From assembly GCA_002134785.1 (NCBI GenBank), contig MBQZ01000015.1, positions 1 through 64,000 on the forward strand: a DNA stretch of 64,000 nucleotides, read 5' to 3'. This stretch comes from Crenothrix sp. D3 (GTDB taxonomy: Bacteria > Pseudomonadota > Gammaproteobacteria > Methylococcales > Methylomonadaceae). A program made the position numbers and the translations under genes. Positions 673-6,733 of the stretch are shown here, piece by piece; position 1 is the first letter of the stretch; every line of letters starts with the position of its first letter. Under the pieces are notes generated by a model. That model was not told the origin of the DNA, did no database searches, and saw nothing but the letters and a program-made list of their open reading frames with translations.

Positions 673-704
673 GTAGGATGGGTAGAGCGATAGCGAAACC
701 CATC
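673..704. repeat. REP-like palindrome upstream of the RAYT gene
   Basis: The sequence GTAGGATGGGTAGAGC, then a short loop GATAGCG, then AAACCCATC forms an imperfect hairpin (GATGGGT pairs with ACCCATC). The same unit appears twice downstream of the transposase at 1277-1353, as expected of REP sequences mobilised by RAYT transposases. Confidence 0.75.
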
Positions 705-731
705 AAACACAATATTAAATATCATCTAAAA

Positions 732-1256
732 ATGACTAACTACCGACGCTATCGTATCAATGGCGGCACCTATTTTTTTACAGTCAACCTAGCAGAGCGT
801 CAACGTAGCTTATTGACAGAGCGCGTTGATAGCTTGCGAGAGGCTTTTCGAGAAGTCAAAAATGCTCATCCGTTTGTGATTGATGCAGTGGTTATTTTGC
901 CAGAACATCTGCATACAATATGGACTCTACCGCAGGGTGATGATGACTTTAGTTTGCGTTGGCGACAGATAAAATCAGCTTTTTCCAGAGCCATAGAAAA
1001 AGACGAGCGAATCTCAAACAGTCGCTTGCGTAAACAAGAACGCGGCGTGTGGCAACGGCGATTTTGGGAACACGCCATTCGTGATGAACAAGATTTTAAT
1101 CGCCGCGTTGATTACATCCATATCAATCCTGTCAAACACGGTTATGTAAAGCGGGCGGCAGATTGGCAGTTTTCATCGTTTCATCGTTATGTAAAATTAG
1201 GCATTTTGTCAGCCGATTGGGCGGGAACGGGAAATGATAGCCTCGATTTGAAATAA
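732..1256 (+). CDS. REP-associated tyrosine transposase (RAYT, Y1_Tnp / IS200-like)
   Basis: This 174-residue protein has the single-stranded-DNA HUH nuclease fold of IS200/RAYT transposases. The HLH metal-binding pair is at about residues 59 and 61 in ILPEHLHTIW, and the catalytic Tyr is at about residue 128 in DYIHINPVKHG. The start at 732 (MTNYRRYRINGG) fits the family. A longer open frame begins at 678 inside the REP palindrome and is less likely. Family members recognise and process REP hairpins. Here the gene is flanked by such hairpins on both sides, including an inverted pair downstream, so the unit looks complete and possibly active. No accessory gene accompanies it. Confidence 0.92.
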   Translation: MTNYRRYRINGGTYFFTVNLAERQRSLLTERVDSLREAFREVKNAHPFVIDAVVILPEHLHTIWTLPQGDDDFSLRWRQIKSAFSRAIEKDERISNSRLRKQERGVWQRRFWEHAIRDEQDFNRRVDYIHINPVKHGYVKRAADWQFSSFHRYVKLGILSADWAGTGNDSLDLK

Positions 1257-1276
1257 TTAATTTAAAATGTGAAATG

Positions 1277-1353
1277 TAGGATGGGTAGAACGCAGTGAAA
1301 CCCATCATTTACGCGGAATTGTGATGGGTTTCGCAAGCTCTACCCATCCTACG
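1277..1353. repeat. REP pair in inverted orientation downstream of the RAYT gene
   Basis: A direct copy of the upstream REP (GTAGGATGGGTAGAACG ... ACCCATC, 1278-1307) is followed by an inverted copy (GATGGGTTTCGC ... CTACCCATCCTAC, 1324-1352), giving a BIME-like head-to-tail pair. A further partial unit ATGACCCATCTTACG follows. The two REPs could pair with each other or fold separately. Confidence 0.72.
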
Positions 1354-1388: not shown

Positions 1389-2759
1389 TTACCAACGACC
1401 AATATAAGCAGCATCAAGCCCGAATGAAAAGGACTCACCATTACCAAAGGAATAGCCAACGGAAGGGCTTATTTGAAATTGCTTGCTCAATACATACGAC
1501 AGGCTTGTTGAAGCTAAAAAGCTACGTTGAAACTGATTGTCTGCGCCTTTTTTATTATGCCCATCATTGACTGTAAAACCAACTGAACCCAAATAACGGT
1601 CAGCAAACGGTTTATTGGCACTAACAAAACCTGATACTTGATATTCTGCTAATGAGGCATCAGCTCGTTTATTTTGACTAAATGCTTTATTAACAGAGCC
1701 GCCTATTATAAATTGAGCAAAACTGGTATTGGCATAACCCATTGTATTAACACCACCGCCAAATACCGTATATTTATCAACAGCATCATTTAAAACACTA
1801 CGATTTTCTGTGAATGAAGTGCTTAAGCCCGCTATAATTCCATTTTGATTAGTCTCATCTAATGAAAACCGATTATTAATATATAAAGAATATTCTCTGT
1901 TTTCTCCATTAGTAATAAGTATATTATCGGTAACATCCGTTTTTTGTCTATTATCGTCATAACTTACAGATGCACCTATTTCAGCATTATCAGTAACACC
2001 ATAACTAATATTTAGATTGTTGACATAATCGCGTGAATGGCTACGAATGCCATTATTATTGTTTTTTCCCAGCGACGCATTAAAACCATAATCAGCAATA
2101 AACTGACCTTCTTTAGTAATGGTTGTTAAGGTAATGAGATTTGATTGTTCTGCTGTTATATGGCTGCGGATTCTTTCGCTTTCAATGAGTGATAAATAAA
2201 GCGAAGAGTCTTGTGGTTTATTGGCGGATGGATTAATCGCCATTACATACCAATCGGGATATTTTGTGTTAGTTCCTTCGGTAATTAATTGACTGTAAGG
2301 GGTACGAATATTACCTCTTATCGAATCAGCTAAAAACGCTTCACCATTTTCAATACCTTTTAAAACGACAAAATGAGGAAACTCGCTGTTGATTCCAATG
2401 AGTAACATAACAGGCTGTTTAATTTTAACTAACTCAGTCGTTGCTACTTTTCGCCATTCTGCATAGAAACCTAATTTTTTACTGGCTTCTGCCAGTTCTA
2501 TTAAGGTGTAACCTTCTTCTTTTTTTGCTTTATTAGCTGTAATGATGTTGATAATATCCATTTCAAAAACATGACTGTTTTCAATAGTCCCAGTAATTAA
2601 AGTTGACAGGGCGGCTGCGCCACAACTGTAATCGTGGCTTTGTTTTATAACACCTTTGAATAAGGTATCGCTATTAATGTCTTGAGCAAATGCACAATGA
2701 ATAAACATAAAGATAAAAATTAATTTAATTAAATCAATTTTTAACATTTTAAATTTCAT
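1389..2759 (-). CDS. Sec-exported C39-like double-glycine peptidase fused to a predicted outer-membrane beta-barrel
   Basis: The protein is about 456-458 residues. It has a hydrophobic signal peptide ending near AFA (residues 1-28). Residues 35-175 form a papain-like C39-type peptidase domain with the expected catalytic set: Gln42 (oxyanion), Cys48 in DYSCGAAAL, His131 in PHFVVLKG, Asp147 in FLADS. From about residue 215 to the end there are alternating polar/aromatic strands rich in Gly, Asn and Ser, and the chain ends with Trp, as outer-membrane barrels do. C39 peptidases normally sit on the cytosolic face of bacteriocin ABC exporters, so a Sec-exported C39 tied to a barrel places cleavage in the periplasm. 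Two ATGs compete. The second (2759) has better spacing from AAGGG; the first is at 2765. Substrates are probably the two precursor genes just upstream. Specificity and a transport role are inference. Confidence 0.8.
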   Translation of the reverse strand: MKFKMLKIDLIKLIFIFMFIHCAFAQDINSDTLFKGVIKQSHDYSCGAAALSTLITGTIENSHVFEMDIINIITANKAKKEEGYTLIELAEASKKLGFYAEWRKVATTELVKIKQPVMLLIGINSEFPHFVVLKGIENGEAFLADSIRGNIRTPYSQLITEGTNTKYPDWYVMAINPSANKPQDSSLYLSLIESERIRSHITAEQSNLITLTTITKEGQFIADYGFNASLGKNNNNGIRSHSRDYVNNLNISYGVTDNAEIGASVSYDDNRQKTDVTDNILITNGENREYSLYINNRFSLDETNQNGIIAGLSTSFTENRSVLNDAVDKYTVFGGGVNTMGYANTSFAQFIIGGSVNKAFSQNKRADASLAEYQVSGFVSANKPFADRYLGSVGFTVNDGHNKKGADNQFQRSFLASTSLSYVLSKQFQISPSVGYSFGNGESFSFGLDAAYIGRW

Positions 2760-2773
2760 TTTCATCCCTTTTT

Positions 2774-2801
2774 AAAAAACCCACGATATTAGTCGTGGGT
2801 T
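2774..2801 (-). terminator. Intrinsic terminator/attenuator between precursor gene and C39-barrel gene
   Basis: On the minus strand a perfect 9-bp stem (AACCCACGA / TCGTGGGTT, 6-nt loop) is followed by TTTTTT. It lies after the 105-residue precursor gene and just before the C39-barrel start. Partial read-through would give abundant precursor and little protease. That consequence is inference. Confidence 0.75.
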
Positions 2802-2810
2802 ATACATATT

Positions 2811-3128
2811 TTATGCTTTATGCTCTACGCATTTACCTTTTGGGCATGTCATCAACTTCACAGGATTTTGTACATTTCTCTTAATCAGCCACCCCAAAGG
2901 TCCTAACCCCATACCACGTAGTCCTTCACCAGACACTTGATTTAATTCTGTTGGTGAAACATGGCTGGAATTAATGTCCTGAAATGCTGTAATAGCAGAG
3001 GCATTAGCTGTTTTTTGAGTAGCAAAATCCGCAAAGGATTTTGTGCTATAAGTTGATGGTTCATCTGCAAAAGCAGAAGATGCGCATAATAACGTGGCAA
3101 CAGAAAAAGCCGTCATAATTTTTTTCAT
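2811..3128 (-). CDS. Sec-exported double-glycine-type peptide precursor 1
   Basis: This 105-residue protein is not assignable to a named family. It has a clean signal peptide (residues 1-21, cleavage after AFA), a Ser/Thr/Ala-rich leader starting DEPST, and then SPTELNQVSGEG at about residues 58-69. That block matches the EL..VSG(G) leader motif recognised by C39 peptidases. The presumed core after GEG is about 36 residues, Gly-rich then strongly basic, with Cys95 and Cys100 in CPKGKC. The ribosome-binding site GAGGTGA is strong. It is paralogous to the next gene upstream and precedes the C39-barrel gene. Role as bacteriocin, signal or surface peptide is undetermined. Confidence 0.72.
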   Translation of the reverse strand: MKKIMTAFSVATLLCASSAFADEPSTYSTKSFADFATQKTANASAITAFQDINSSHVSPTELNQVSGEGLRGMGLGPLGWLIKRNVQNPVKLMTCPKGKCVEHKA

Positions 3129-3149
3129 GGTTCACCTCATCAAATTAAA

Positions 3150-3179
3150 AAAATAGGCGCATATTTTTCAATATGCGCC
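3150..3179 (-). terminator. Intrinsic terminator after precursor gene 2
   Basis: On the minus strand a perfect 9-bp stem GGCGCATAT / ATATGCGCC with a 6-nt loop is followed by TATTTTTTT. It separates the two precursor genes, so precursor 2 is probably made in excess of precursor 1 unless precursor 1 has its own promoter. Confidence 0.8.
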
Positions 3180-3191
3180 GACTAAAAACTA

Positions 3192-3509
3192 TTAACAAGG
3201 AAACTTACATGAACCTTTTCTCATGCCAGTTGCTTTTCGCCATATCTCTTTAATTGTTGGCCAAATACCCCCATCCCCAGAAACCGCATTTAATTCAACG
3301 GGTGACACTGCGTTGGTAGGAATACCCGCAAACGCATTTAATTGACTTTTTGACGGTATGCTTGTCAATGTGGATGAGCTAACGTGCGATACCGCCCCTG
3401 TTGTAATGCCCACAGAATTGATTGTTGAAGGTGTATCGGCAAATGCAGTTGAAGCCACTACCAATGAGCCAATAATCAATGCGGACTTAATAAATTTCGC
3501 GTTTTTCAT
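3192..3509 (-). CDS. Sec-exported double-glycine-type peptide precursor 2
   Basis: Starting at the ATG at 3509 (AGGT ribosome-binding site 5 nt upstream) the protein is 105 residues, exactly as long as precursor 1. It has a signal peptide to about residue 24 (cleavage after AFA), a leader starting DTPST, and SPVELNAVSGDG at about residues 69-80, aligned with the same block in precursor 1. The presumed core of about 25 residues (GIWPTIKEIW..., two Cys in SCKFPC) is cationic and could form an amphipathic helix. A longer in-frame start at 3566 would hide the signal peptide and is rejected. The two proteins share signal, leader and cleavage block but have divergent cores, the pattern of a precursor family. 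Confidence 0.72.
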   Translation of the reverse strand: MKNAKFIKSALIIGSLVVASTAFADTPSTINSVGITTGAVSHVSSSTLTSIPSKSQLNAFAGIPTNAVSPVELNAVSGDGGIWPTIKEIWRKATGMRKGSCKFPC

Positions 3510-3650: not shown

Positions 3651-4043
3651 ATGGCAGTACACGAAAAAATTCGGCTTTTCAGAAAAGCTAAAGGTTTGAC
3701 CTTGGAAGAAGTAGCCCATCAACTAGATATGTCTACTAATGGTTATGGCGATATTGAACGCGGTGTAACTGATATTAACTTATCCAGATTGGAGCAAATA
3801 GCTGGACTATTTGGTATGGAATTATCAGAGTTAATGGATTTAAATGAGAAAAATGTTTTTAATTTTTTAGGCACGGAAAATACTGGTATAGGCACACAAA
3901 ATCATTGCACCATTAACCAAGACTTATCTGAGCTGTTACAATTAAAATTCCAACTTGAAAAGCAACAACTTATTATTGACCAACAAACACAAGAAGTTAT
4001 TTATTTAAAAGAAATTATTGCTTTGATGAAAAAAGAAAGCTAA
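3651..4043 (+). CDS. XRE-family helix-turn-helix regulator with C-terminal coiled coil
   Basis: An N-terminal HTH_3 domain (about residues 6-60: KIRLFRKAKGLTLEEVAHQL ... NGYGDIERG) is followed by a linker containing a GIGTQNH-like segment and a C-terminal Leu/Gln-rich predicted coiled coil (about 90-128) likely for dimerisation. ATG at 3651 lies 9 nt after TAGGGG; an in-frame GTG at 3645 is an alternative. The gene is divergent from the peptide precursors and lies 9 nt before the BrnT gene, so it may regulate both units. Its target is not shown by sequence. Confidence 0.82.
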   Translation: MAVHEKIRLFRKAKGLTLEEVAHQLDMSTNGYGDIERGVTDINLSRLEQIAGLFGMELSELMDLNEKNVFNFLGTENTGIGTQNHCTINQDLSELLQLKFQLEKQQLIIDQQTQEVIYLKEIIALMKKES

Positions 4044-4052
4044 AAAATATCT

Positions 4053-4337
4053 ATGAAATTTGAATGGGACGAAAATAAAAATCAAATAAATATCCGTAAG
4101 CATGGTATTGATTTTCATGATGCTGCTTATGTATTTTCTGACCCTTTCGCATTAAGCATACCCGATGATGAACATTCAGACAGGGAAGAGCGGTGGCTTT
4201 TGTTGGGAAATAACTTAAATGAGCAGTTATTATTGGTTGTTCATGTATTTCGTTGTGATGAGGTGATTAGAATTATTTCTGCTAGAAAGGCAACCGCTAA
4301 CGAGAAAACCACTTATATAAAGAGGCTAACAAAATGA
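4053..4337 (+). CDS. brnT: BrnT-family ribonuclease toxin
   Basis: The 94-residue protein matches BrnT: N-terminal KFEWDENKNQINIRKHGI, central VFSDPFA and EERW, and C-terminal VIRIISARKATANEK. BrnT toxins are small RNase-fold proteins that block translation and are neutralised by BrnA. The stop codon overlaps the ATG of the next gene by 4 nt, as in toxin-antitoxin pairs. The preceding XRE gene is 9 nt away. All recognisable family blocks are present and there is no sign of truncation. Confidence 0.88.
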   Translation: MKFEWDENKNQINIRKHGIDFHDAAYVFSDPFALSIPDDEHSDREERWLLLGNNLNEQLLLVVHVFRCDEVIRIISARKATANEKTTYIKRLTK

Positions 4338-4537
4338 AAGACGAATATGATTTTTCTAATGCTGAACAAGGTAAATTTTATGTGCCTGTTGAACAGATTG
4401 AATTACCGATTTATTTAGATAAAGACCTCGTGCTATGTCTTGAGAAAAAATGCCAAGCATCACATGAAAGTTTACAGATTTTGGTGAATAAATTATTGCG
4501 TAGCGCGATTGAAAATGATTCTATCGCTACACCATAA
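4334..4537 (+). CDS. BrnA-like / ribbon-helix-helix antitoxin
   Basis: This 67-residue protein overlaps the BrnT gene by 4 nt. It begins DEYDFSNAEQGKFYVPVEQ, a disordered toxin-binding-type N-terminus seen in BrnT partners. It then has a predicted short strand LPIYLDKDL and two helices, consistent with a CopG/ribbon-helix-helix DNA-binding fold. Such antitoxins repress their own operon. It is shorter than typical BrnA, so the antitoxin assignment rests mainly on position and the N-terminal pattern. Confidence 0.75.
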   Translation: MKDEYDFSNAEQGKFYVPVEQIELPIYLDKDLVLCLEKKCQASHESLQILVNKLLRSAIENDSIATP

Positions 4538-4566
4538 TTTTAGTTAAAAATTGTGATGAAAGCGGG

Positions 4567-4720
4567 GTAGCCGCCTCACTGCCATTAAGTTAAGCCGTTC
4601 GTGGTGAGCTTGTCGAACCATGAACGGCTTAACTTCGGGGCTTCGGATGTTTCCATTCACCCTTCGACAGGCTCAGGGCGAACGGAAAAATCCTTAACTT
4701 AATGGCAGTGAGTAGCCGCC
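4567..4720. mobile_element. MITE-like element (family A, copy 1) with 9-bp target duplication
   Basis: The termini TCACTGCCATTAAGTTAAG (4576-4594) and its exact inverse (4693-4711) enclose 98 bp. The element is bracketed by the direct repeat GTAGCCGCC (4567-4575 and 4712-4720), a target duplication. There is no coding capacity. The interior consists of two copies of the common CGTTCG...TGTCGAA palindrome family, so a repeat is nested in a repeat. Other copies are at 49629-49721 and 53105-53229. The parent transposase is not in the window. Confidence 0.85.
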
Positions 4721-4827
4721 TAGGTTGGATCGCCGTCTTTTTTAATTATTATTGGCAGCTTTCACCTGTAGTGGGTAATAAGTTAATAACAAGAAATCAG
4801 AAGGTATATACGGCTCAAGCCAAGTCG

Positions 4828-4925
4828 TCGTTATTCCAGCATAAATGCTGGAATCCAGTGCCAAGGATGGCATGACATTAAACACATCCCTGTGACTGGA
4901 TTCTGGCATCCCTGCCAGAATAACG
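4828..4925. repeat. Large inverted-repeat element (CGTTATTCCAGCAT type)
   Basis: The arm CGTTATTCCAGCATAAATGC at 4828 and the inverse arm ending GCCAGAATAACG at 4925 flank an interior; each arm can also fold on itself (CCAGCAT...ATGCTGG). This is a dispersed-repeat pattern common in proteobacteria. The short open frame across it (4742-4936) is not a convincing gene. Confidence 0.65.
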
Positions 4926-5081
4926 TTTTTATACATACGAACTTATTACGATGAACTTATAGGCGCGTAACACCAGTGAATAACTAGGCTTGATACATAA
5001 TTGATTTTTGCCAGTATTACCCAGCAACGCGCTTGCGTAGTTATACACAACCTGACTGCTAACTTTTATCACAAAACACAT

Positions 5082-5107
5082 AAAAAAGCCCCGATGAAAT
5101 CGGGGCT
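5082..5107 (-). terminator. Intrinsic terminator of pckA
   Basis: On the minus strand a 9-bp stem AGCCCCGAT / ATCGGGGCT with a 3-nt loop is followed by TTTTTT, starting 10 bp after the pckA stop codon. Confidence 0.9.
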
Positions 5108-5116
5108 ATGTTGATA

Positions 5117-6733
5117 TTATGATTTTGGTCGTCCTGATTCGAGAATCGCTGACTCCATATCAGGAAATTTCATTGCCATATTGGCATGAAAAAGCTGGTT
5201 TAGCTCTTGGCAAGCCGCATGGTATGACGTTTTATCGTCCCACATATTCAATGGATTGAGGTTGCGTTCATCCACGCCTGCAACGTGTTTAGGGACTAAC
5301 AAGTTATGTTCAGTCAGTAACACTAAATCCTCATCGTGAATTTTGTTGTGTTGTATGGCGTGGACAATATTTCTGGAGGTTGCAATAGAGAATCGTCTGC
5401 CAGCTGGAGAACCCATCGGGCCACCTGTCCACCCCGTATTAACCAAATACACAGGGACATTGTGTTCACGCAATTTAGTCTGGAATAAATCGAGATAGTA
5501 TTTGCTTAACAGCGGAAAAAAGACTTCGCCAAAATACGCACTGAATGTGGGTTCAAAATCATGCAAACTATTGGCTTCGGTACTGCCGATTTTGGTGGTG
5601 TAGCCTGCGGCAAAATAATACGCCGCTTGTTCAGCAGATAGTTTGGCAACAGGCGGCAATACACCATACATATCACAAGTCAGGAAAATAATTGCGTCTG
5701 GGTGTCCTGCGTGTTCAGCGGGATAGACATCGTCAATAAAATCCATTGGATAGAGACCACGAATATTTTCGGGGCCAATTTCAAAATCGGGCAGGCGGTT
5801 ATTATCCAGCACCACATTTTCCATGATAGTGCCAAAGTGCAACGCGTCCCAGATTAGCTGTTCACGTTCTCGAGTAATATCGTGTAGTTTCGCATAGCAA
5901 CCACCCGCAATATTAAAGATGCCATTAGGTCCCCAACCATGCCCATCATCACCAATCAATAGACAGTCTGGATCAGCAGAGAGCGCGGTTTTTCCTGTGC
6001 CTGATAGCCCTAAAAATAGCGTGACATGACCTTCTTTTTTAGTGATATTCGCGCCGCAGTGCATGGTAAGCACATCATCAAAAGGCAGTAGCGTGTTCAT
6101 TGCCGTAAAAAAGGCTTTCCATTCACAGCCGCCATAAGTACGGTTGGCGATTAAAATAACTTGTTCGTCCAAGTCAATAGCAATCACGCCATCACTGTGA
6201 GTGGAATCGCGTTCTGGAACGGTAATAAATGACGGAACGCTTAATAATGTCCACGGTTTTTTATTGCCATCGTGCGCTTCACCTTTGATAAAAAAGTTGC
6301 GTCCAAACAGGTGATGCCACGCGTATTTTGTGACTAGGCGTATCGGTTGACGGTATTGACTGTCTTTGCCTATATAAAGATCATCGGAGAAAAACAATGG
6401 TTCATCCAGTGTGTCTGCATGATTCATGACTTTATCCATGAGCGCGAGAAACACATCGCGCGGCATTTCTTTGTTGACTGAATTCCAGTTAATTTGTGAT
6501 GAATATTTGCCTGCAACGATGTATCGGTCAGCGGGTGAGCGTCCTGTGCGGTTGGTATCAACACATAACGCGCCATTCGATGCTAAACGCGCGTTGATAG
6601 GGGCTTTACTTTCGTATTTTATCGAATGCTCAATAAGTTCGATGTCACACGTTGGTTGTCTAAAGCGTCCATGATTAAGAATTATCGCTGACAAGTTGTC
6701 AGATTGATTTTTGCTTCCCTGTTGTTCTGGCAT
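5117..6733 (-). CDS. pckA: Phosphoenolpyruvate carboxykinase (ATP)
   Basis: A 538-residue cytosolic enzyme of gluconeogenesis: oxaloacetate + ATP gives PEP + ADP + CO2. The P-loop kinase motif GLSGTGKTALS, the metal-binding block LLIGDDGHGW, and the downstream YAKLHDITRE and TGWTGG blocks identify the ATP-dependent family and its usual length. The start at 6733 (MPEQQGSKNQ) has a strong GGGAGG site 5 nt upstream. A longer frame to 6802 is not needed. It is transcribed alone, with its own terminator. With the downstream glucokinase operon it suggests that this region handles both ends of hexose metabolism, though the genes are not co-transcribed. Confidence 0.97.
   Translation of the reverse strand: MPEQQGSKNQSDNLSAIILNHGRFRQPTCDIELIEHSIKYESKAPINARLASNGALCVDTNRTGRSPADRYIVAGKYSSQINWNSVNKEMPRDVFLALMDKVMNHADTLDEPLFFSDDLYIGKDSQYRQPIRLVTKYAWHHLFGRNFFIKGEAHDGNKKPWTLLSVPSFITVPERDSTHSDGVIAIDLDEQVILIANRTYGGCEWKAFFTAMNTLLPFDDVLTMHCGANITKKEGHVTLFLGLSGTGKTALSADPDCLLIGDDGHGWGPNGIFNIAGGCYAKLHDITREREQLIWDALHFGTIMENVVLDNNRLPDFEIGPENIRGLYPMDFIDDVYPAEHAGHPDAIIFLTCDMYGVLPPVAKLSAEQAAYYFAAGYTTKIGSTEANSLHDFEPTFSAYFGEVFFPLLSKYYLDLFQTKLREHNVPVYLVNTGWTGGPMGSPAGRRFSIATSRNIVHAIQHNKIHDEDLVLLTEHNLLVPKHVAGVDERNLNPLNMWDDKTSYHAACQELNQLFHANMAMKFPDMESAILESGRPKS

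What the first reader, a model, noticed from the sequence alone, without database searches (positions are those of the whole stretch)
1389..3509. Periplasmic double-glycine peptide system: C39 peptidase fused to an outer-membrane barrel with two Sec-exported paralogous precursors
Seen: the two 105-residue precursors share a signal peptide, a D.PST mature start, the block SP.ELN.VSG(E/D)G, and then diverge into short basic cores (about 36 and 25 residues) with two cysteines each. The next gene encodes a signal-peptide-bearing C39-like peptidase with Gln42, Cys48, His131, Asp147, followed by a probable barrel ending in Trp. Known: C39 domains cleave after GG in ELxxVSGG-type leaders at the cytosolic side of PCAT exporters. 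Inference: here processing is moved to the periplasm, and one polypeptide may cut the precursor and help release the core through the outer membrane. I know stand-alone Sec-exported C39-like peptidases as a predicted class, but not this barrel fusion with Sec-exported GG-type substrates; I cannot check the literature.
Basis: partly seen in the sequence, partly recalled or inferred. Interest (0 to 1): 0.93.

Follow-up and report, generated by a model that had tools for sequence, protein, structure and literature searches.

The report
Peptide-cutting enzyme fused to export barrel
A methane-oxidising bacterium carries a small gene cluster in which short, positively charged peptides are exported with a removable leader and, next door, one protein combines the leader-cutting enzyme with a pore-like outer-membrane barrel; in every other relative examined these are two separate proteins.

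Summary
Two Sec-signal precursors (105 aa each) precede a protein with a C39 peptidase (Q42, C48, H131, D147) and a C-terminal 12-strand barrel. AlphaFold2 (mean pLDDT 82) and Foldseek support both domains: C39 resembles PCAT1 and ComA; the barrel resembles FapF, COG4313 channels and autotransporter translocators.

The fusion is a single clade: four loci in 3 of 237 genomes of this methanotroph family. The own genome has two, and the best family-wide matches to the precursor profile fall in the same three genomes. All four loci have an upstream signal-peptide precursor and hairpins between precursor and fused gene; three have a divergent XRE regulator.

FapD/FapF (Pseudomonas amyloid) and NapP/NapF (Neisseria cationic GG peptides, 2025) are two-protein versions. 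In every FapD-like locus examined, the peptidase is a gene of its own; where a barrel gene is found it is separate, often next in the order precursor, C39, barrel. New here is fusing the two in a Nap-like module.

Likely mechanism: Sec export, periplasmic leader removal near Gly-x-Gly, release of the cationic core through the attached barrel. Cleavage, export and activity are untested. New variant of a known kind.

The parts
1389..2765 (-). Fused protein: signal peptide (about residues 1-27), C39 peptidase (about 36-177; Q42, C48, H131, D147), linker with helices 195-213, 12-strand outer-membrane barrel (221-457) ending in Trp; start possibly at 2759
   Evidence: Pfam C39 E 3.4e-12; NCBIfam partial FilB/FapD matches; AF2 pLDDT 81.8; Foldseek; RBS position
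2811..3128 (-). Precursor A, 105 aa: signal peptide to AFA|D, acidic leader with AFQDI and SPTELNQVSGEG, basic 36-aa core with two Cys
3192..3509 (-). Precursor B, 105 aa: signal peptide to AFA|D, acidic leader with AFAGI and SPVELNAVSGDG, basic 25-aa core with two Cys
3156..3179 (-). Intrinsic-terminator-like hairpin after precursor B (10-bp stem then U-run)
   Evidence: -16.3 kcal/mol, z -4.0
2778..2801 (-). Terminator-like hairpin between precursor A and the fused gene (9-bp stem, U-run)
   Evidence: -13.5 kcal/mol, z -3.6
3651..4043 (+). Divergent XRE/HTH_3 regulator; homologues stand at the same place beside two of the other three loci
   Evidence: HTH_3 E 8e-12; 38% and 29% identity

Best explanation
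A small, probably horizontally acquired peptide-secretion module. Precursors cross the inner membrane by Sec and lose the signal peptide at AFA|D. In the periplasm the acidic leader, with conserved Phe -20, Ile/Val -17, Val -12, Leu -7, Val -4 and Gly -2, docks on the C39 domain, which cuts near Gly-x-Gly and frees a short cationic core (disulphide-bonded where it has two Cys). The C39 domain hangs on the periplasmic side of a FapF-like 12-strand barrel, so the core is cut at the mouth of the channel that releases it. Hairpins after each precursor gene make more precursor than enzyme; the XRE protein regulates. By analogy with Neisseria Naps the cores are bacteriocin-like or self-lytic peptides. 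Shown by computation: domains, catalytic residues, barrel fold, precursor family, co-occurrence, hairpins. Inferred: cleavage, periplasmic orientation, passage through the barrel, peptide activity.
For: Domains and fold: (PCAT1 C39 TMt 0.80, ComA 0.82; FapF 0.66, COG4313 channel 0.65). The barrel profile is nearer to barrel genes beside standalone C39 genes (prob 85%, E 6e-6, 63 columns) than to autotransporters of the same order (13%, 2e-3) or FadL-like barrels (0.9%, 0.06). Fused C39 domains form one clade, support 100/98. Co-occurrence: fused barrel in 3 of 237 family genomes; the precursor profile's best matches fall in the same three genomes (1e-43, 2e-37, 1.4e-6; next 9e-4 lies inside an unrelated long reading frame). 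Linkage: signal-peptide precursor upstream of 4 of 4 loci; hairpin between precursor and fused gene in 4 of 4. The own genome has no other C39 domain, hence no PCAT exporter of the usual kind. Adjacent gene order precursor, C39, barrel in several unfused loci, for instance L017 with 4 bp between C39 and barrel. Function by analogy: PMC11798529, PMC5557850.
Against: No biochemical data. The sites are Gly-Glu, Gly-Asp, Gly-Asn or Gly-Thr rather than Gly-Gly, which cytosolic C39 enzymes are not known (to me) to prefer. The precursor at the C84 locus is not significantly similar in sequence to the others, so its membership rests on place, signal peptide and GAG motif. AF2 domain orientation is uncertain (pTM 0.56), and best Foldseek E-values are to autotransporters. 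The hhalign link to FapF-like barrels covers only 63 columns. No immunity gene is evident.
Confidence: 0.62

Rival explanations
1. The fused protein is a type Va autotransporter: the barrel carries the C39 domain to the cell surface, where it cuts leader or other proteins outside; the precursors leave by another route.
For: N-terminal enzyme, C-terminal 12-strand barrel and linker helix fit the autotransporter plan; best Foldseek E-values are NalP and EstA.
Against: Profile comparison is nearer to FapF-like barrels than to autotransporters of the same order; Pfam Autotransporter does not match; catalytic partners FapD and NapP are periplasmic; FapF, with the same fold, keeps its N-terminus in the periplasm (PMC5557850); co-encoded precursors need a cutter before or during release.
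Confidence: 0.17
2. A reduced Fap- or Fil-like surface-fibre system: the cores assemble on the surface as a small fibre or coat rather than acting as free peptides.
For: The C39 domain partly matches FilB and FapD models; Fap-like loci in the same family use the same logic.
Against: Cores are 20-53 aa, strongly basic, sometimes with Cys pairs, without the Asn/Gln repeats of FapB/FapC; no FapA/B/C/E genes nearby.
Confidence: 0.1
3. C39 and barrel serve separate jobs (the barrel is an anchor or general porin, the precursors periplasmic or outer-membrane-active peptides that are never exported through it).
For: Barrel fold alone does not show transport; 25-36-residue peptides might leave by other channels or act from inside.
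Against: The barrel is conserved only with the C39 domain and precursors, in one clade; its relatives sit beside C39 genes.
Confidence: 0.11

Closest known systems
Neisseria nap island: NapABC peptides, NapP (C39), NapF (FapF homologue), NapR (PMC11798529)
   Same: Low-GC island; short cationic peptides (36, 16, 31 aa after cleavage, pI 9-10) released at a GG motif; regulator; C39 peptidase; FapF-like export channel; periplasmic cleavage proposed
   Different: NapP and NapF are separate genes at opposite ends of the island; leaders carry a GG motif whereas here it is mostly G-x-G; napI and napH have no counterpart here
Pseudomonas Fap amyloid system: FapD and FapF (PMC5557850)
   Same: Sec-exported C39 protease active in the periplasm; 12-strand barrel of the same fold; both needed for secretion of Sec-exported substrates
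   Different: Separate proteins; FapF has a trimeric coiled-coil instead of the peptidase; substrates are amyloid proteins
PCAT / C39-ABC bacteriocin exporters (PCAT1, ComA)
   Same: C39 fold and catalytic residues; leader with hydrophobic positions and glycines before the cut
   Different: Cytosolic, ATP-driven, inner membrane; no Sec signal peptide on the substrate
FilB (NCBIfam NF050078), Acinetobacter putative pilus system
   Same: Best NCBIfam match of the C39 domain, residues 34-154
   Different: 58 bits against a cut-off of 475; not fused to a barrel in that model
Type Va autotransporters (NalP, EstA)
   Same: N-terminal enzyme plus C-terminal 12-strand barrel
   Different: No Pfam Autotransporter match; passenger acts on the surface; no cognate GG-type precursors

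Membership tests
Peptidase C39 | Catalytic Cys/His/Asp and oxyanion Gln in a C39 fold | tested here: met
   Q42, C48, H131, D147; Pfam cut-off passed; PCAT1 domain TMt 0.80
FapD (NCBIfam NF058616) | Equivalog score 330 bits | tested here: not met
   52.5 bits, partial match residues 35-159
FilB (NF050078) | Score 475 bits | tested here: not met
   58.5 bits, partial
FapF/COG4313-type barrel | 12-strand barrel of FapF fold | tested here: met
   12 strands, FapF 5o67 TMt 0.66, COG4313 4rl8 TMt 0.65
FapF/COG4313-type barrel | Sequence-profile homology | tested here: inconclusive
   hhalign prob 85%, E 6e-6 but only 63 columns; no Phenol_MetA_deg Pfam match
Fap amyloid operon | FapA/B/C/E with Asn/Gln amyloid repeats | tested here: not met
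   none in the neighbourhood
nap-like island | Short cationic peptides with Gly-type leader, DNA-binding regulator, C39 and FapF-like channel together | tested here: met
   channel and C39 are one protein here
nap-like island | Separate napP and napF; napI and napH present | tested here: not met
Class II microcin / PCAT pathway | C39-ABC exporter in genome | tested here: not met
   only two C39 domains in the own genome, both barrel fusions
Type Va autotransporter | PF03797 barrel | tested here: not met
   no match; hhalign 13%
Periplasmic processing | Observed cleavage of the precursors by the C39 domain | not testable with these tools
   needs experiment

The most novel reading that the evidence does not exclude
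One outer-membrane polypeptide is a complete, ATP-free maturation-and-export unit for small cationic peptides: the C39 domain captures and cuts the Sec-delivered precursor and feeds the core directly into its own barrel.
Probability: 0.4. Interest if true: 0.82.

Novelty: new variant of a known kind. Interest (0 to 1): 0.63.

Why it matters
How small peptides cross the outer membrane in Fap/Nap-type systems, what the periplasmic C39 enzyme cuts, and whether cutting and release are coupled are open: PMC5557850 states that the target of FapD is unclear. A natural fusion ties peptidase and barrel functionally (a Rosetta-stone argument for FapD-FapF and NapP-NapF) and reduces the system to two genes with short, recognisable substrates, so cleavage and export can be tested in a laboratory E. 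coli strain. It also adds a likely peptide-interference system to methanotrophs.

Tried and rejected
Chance or mis-called ORFs: rejected, since the same arrangement recurs in four loci with conserved residues. Transport by a C39-ABC exporter in the same genome: rejected, none found. Phage origin: no relative in IMG/VR by pattern scan; only C39-domain matches in phage records. Plasmid-borne copies: only C39-domain matches, none covering 80%. Wider spread of the fusion: none in 369 class or 398 phylum genomes sampled apart from the own; the genome-contig scan of 84,980 species found standalone or ABC-type C39 only, but it is pattern-based and can miss distant fusions. HTH operator search between regulator and precursor gave only AT-rich repeats. 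A simple leader motif among signal-peptide neighbours of 28 standalone C39 genes was enriched (21 of 51 against 8.1 expected), but a few hits are clearly spurious. First AF2 run with 4 sequences gave a poor C39 domain; adding 28 C39 domains solved it.

Full report
WHAT IS THERE. On the minus strand of the window, in transcription order: precursor B (3509-3192), precursor A (3128-2811) and a 458-aa protein (2765-1389). The gaps between genes are 63 and 45 bp. Upstream and divergent is an XRE-type regulator (3651-4043 +; HTH_3 E 8e-12). GC is about 34-40% across the module against 42-49% in most flanking blocks. A Y1/REP-type transposase gene (678-1256) lies to the left. The genome carries a PF02461 (AMO/pMMO subunit A) gene, so the organism is very likely a methanotroph.

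PRECURSORS. Both have a signal peptide ending AFA|D, an acidic leader (pI 4.3 and 4.5) and a basic core (36 aa pI 10.2; 25 aa pI 10.1) with two Cys. They match over residues 2-69 of A (BLASTP E 2e-12); the match with the signal peptide removed exceeds all of 300 shuffles. Besides SP.ELN.VSG.G they share an upstream AF.(D/G)I motif. Counting P1 as the residue after the first Gly (SGE|G), the hydrophobic positions are Val -4, Leu -7, Val -12, Ile -17 and Phe -20 in both (read from the sequence). Positions -4, -7, -12 and -15 are, from memory, those that matter in ComA-type leaders.

FUSED PROTEIN. Pfam finds C39 (3.4e-12) and nothing in the C-terminal half. NCBIfam gives partial, far-below-cut-off matches to FilB and FapD. 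With an alignment of 32 sequences AlphaFold2 gives mean pLDDT 81.8; blocks of the C39 domain are mostly 83-94 and of the barrel mostly 80-97; 12 strands span 221-457. Foldseek aligns the C39 part to PCAT1 (TMt 0.80) and ComA (0.82), and the barrel to NalP (best E 4e-12), FapF (TMt 0.66) and the COG4313 channel (0.65). pTM is 0.56, so the relative placement of the two domains is not known.

RELATIVES OF THE FUSION. The own genome has a second fused gene on another contig (38% identity over 41-458) with its own regulator and signal-peptide precursor (L003). Those two are the only C39 domains in the genome. Among 237 family genomes the barrel occurs in G000, G061 and G250 only; 311 order genomes add none, and samples of 369 class and 398 phylum genomes add none. 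G250 has a precursor (84 aa...DLNLVSGNGNGIRTLGFTSRPSTIVVVRK) directly upstream. In G061 the fused gene is split by contig ends: one contig begins inside the C39 domain and another ends in the first codons of a signal-peptide gene preceded by a precursor and a divergent regulator. That these two contigs belong together is an inference. The catalytic Cys of G061 is not covered.

CO-OCCURRENCE. A profile of the three closest precursors, run over the same 237 genomes, gives its best matches in exactly the three genomes with the fused gene (E 1e-43, 2e-37, 1.4e-6). The next match, 9e-4, lies across an unrelated long reading frame. The third genome's precursor was therefore found by sequence, not by place. 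The precursor of the own second locus is not significantly similar; it counts only by position, signal peptide and a KGAG motif.

EXPRESSION. A terminator-like hairpin follows each precursor gene in the window (-16.3 and -13.5 kcal/mol, z -4.0 and -3.6), and hairpins lie between precursor and fused gene in L053, L003 and L077 (z -4.2, -3.3, -5.5). Four of four loci have it. The simplest reading is partial termination giving more precursor than enzyme; this is inference.

ORIGIN. The four fused C39 domains are one clade (100/98). In the standalone FapD-like loci fetched the C39 protein is 211-394 aa and, where the contig shows it, the barrel is a gene of its own. In non-amyloid loci the order precursor, C39, barrel is common (L021, L022, L026, L027; in L017 C39 and barrel are 4 bp apart). 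Fusing the last two genes of such an operon would give the window protein. The fused barrel profile is nearer to these barrels (hhalign 85%, 6e-6, 63 columns) than to autotransporter barrels of the same order (13%, 2e-3) or to FadL-like barrels (0.9%). The evidence is modest but points away from an autotransporter.

WHAT IS KNOWN. FapD is a Sec-exported C39 protease whose catalytic Cys is needed for FapC secretion, acting in the periplasm beside the 12-strand barrel FapF (PMC5557850). The Neisseria nap island codes for cationic peptides of 36, 16 and 31 aa after cleavage at GG, a regulator, C39 peptidase NapP and FapF homologue NapF, with cleavage in the periplasm proposed (PMC11798529). Literature searches found no C39-barrel fusion; the library holds open-licence papers only.

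VERDICT. A new variant of the FapD/FapF-NapP/NapF kind: peptidase and channel in one polypeptide, with a dedicated short cationic precursor family, rare and patchy in methanotrophs. Shown by computation: domains, fold, conservation, co-occurrence, hairpins. Inferred: cleavage, periplasmic placement, export through the barrel, bacteriocin-like or self-lytic activity.

Noticed in passing
L017:6269-6787(-), 5494-6285(-), 4296-5489(-): In a genome of the same genus a signal-peptide protein with a leader-like stretch (SLNDHELASVEAKG) carries a CHAP (amidase-type) domain and is followed by a standalone C39 peptidase and a barrel: possibly a C39-processed cell-wall hydrolase. The barrel protein has an HTH_17 domain right after its signal peptide, odd for a periplasmic segment.
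   Followed up: partly
L022:4160-5701(-): A barrel gene beside a standalone C39 gene has an N-terminal SPOR (peptidoglycan-binding) domain; its two precursors share an FxALxxIxAxPVxxxELAxTEGG leader with that of L021.
   Followed up: partly
window 4053-4537: BrnT-type toxin gene (Pfam E 1.5e-29) followed by a short overlapping ORF at the antitoxin's place, directly after the regulator.
   Followed up: no
window 678-1353: Y1 (REP-associated type) transposase gene with GATGGGTTTCGC...CTACCCATCCTACG-type inverted sequence beside it, left of the module.
   Followed up: no
L032, L036, L040, L041 (Desulfobacterota loci): Standalone C39 genes preceded by pairs of signal-peptide proteins with an (E/Q)(L/M)K.(A/T)TAQ.G-type stretch and followed by a barrel and a FadL-like gene: another uncharacterised family of this kind.
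   Followed up: no
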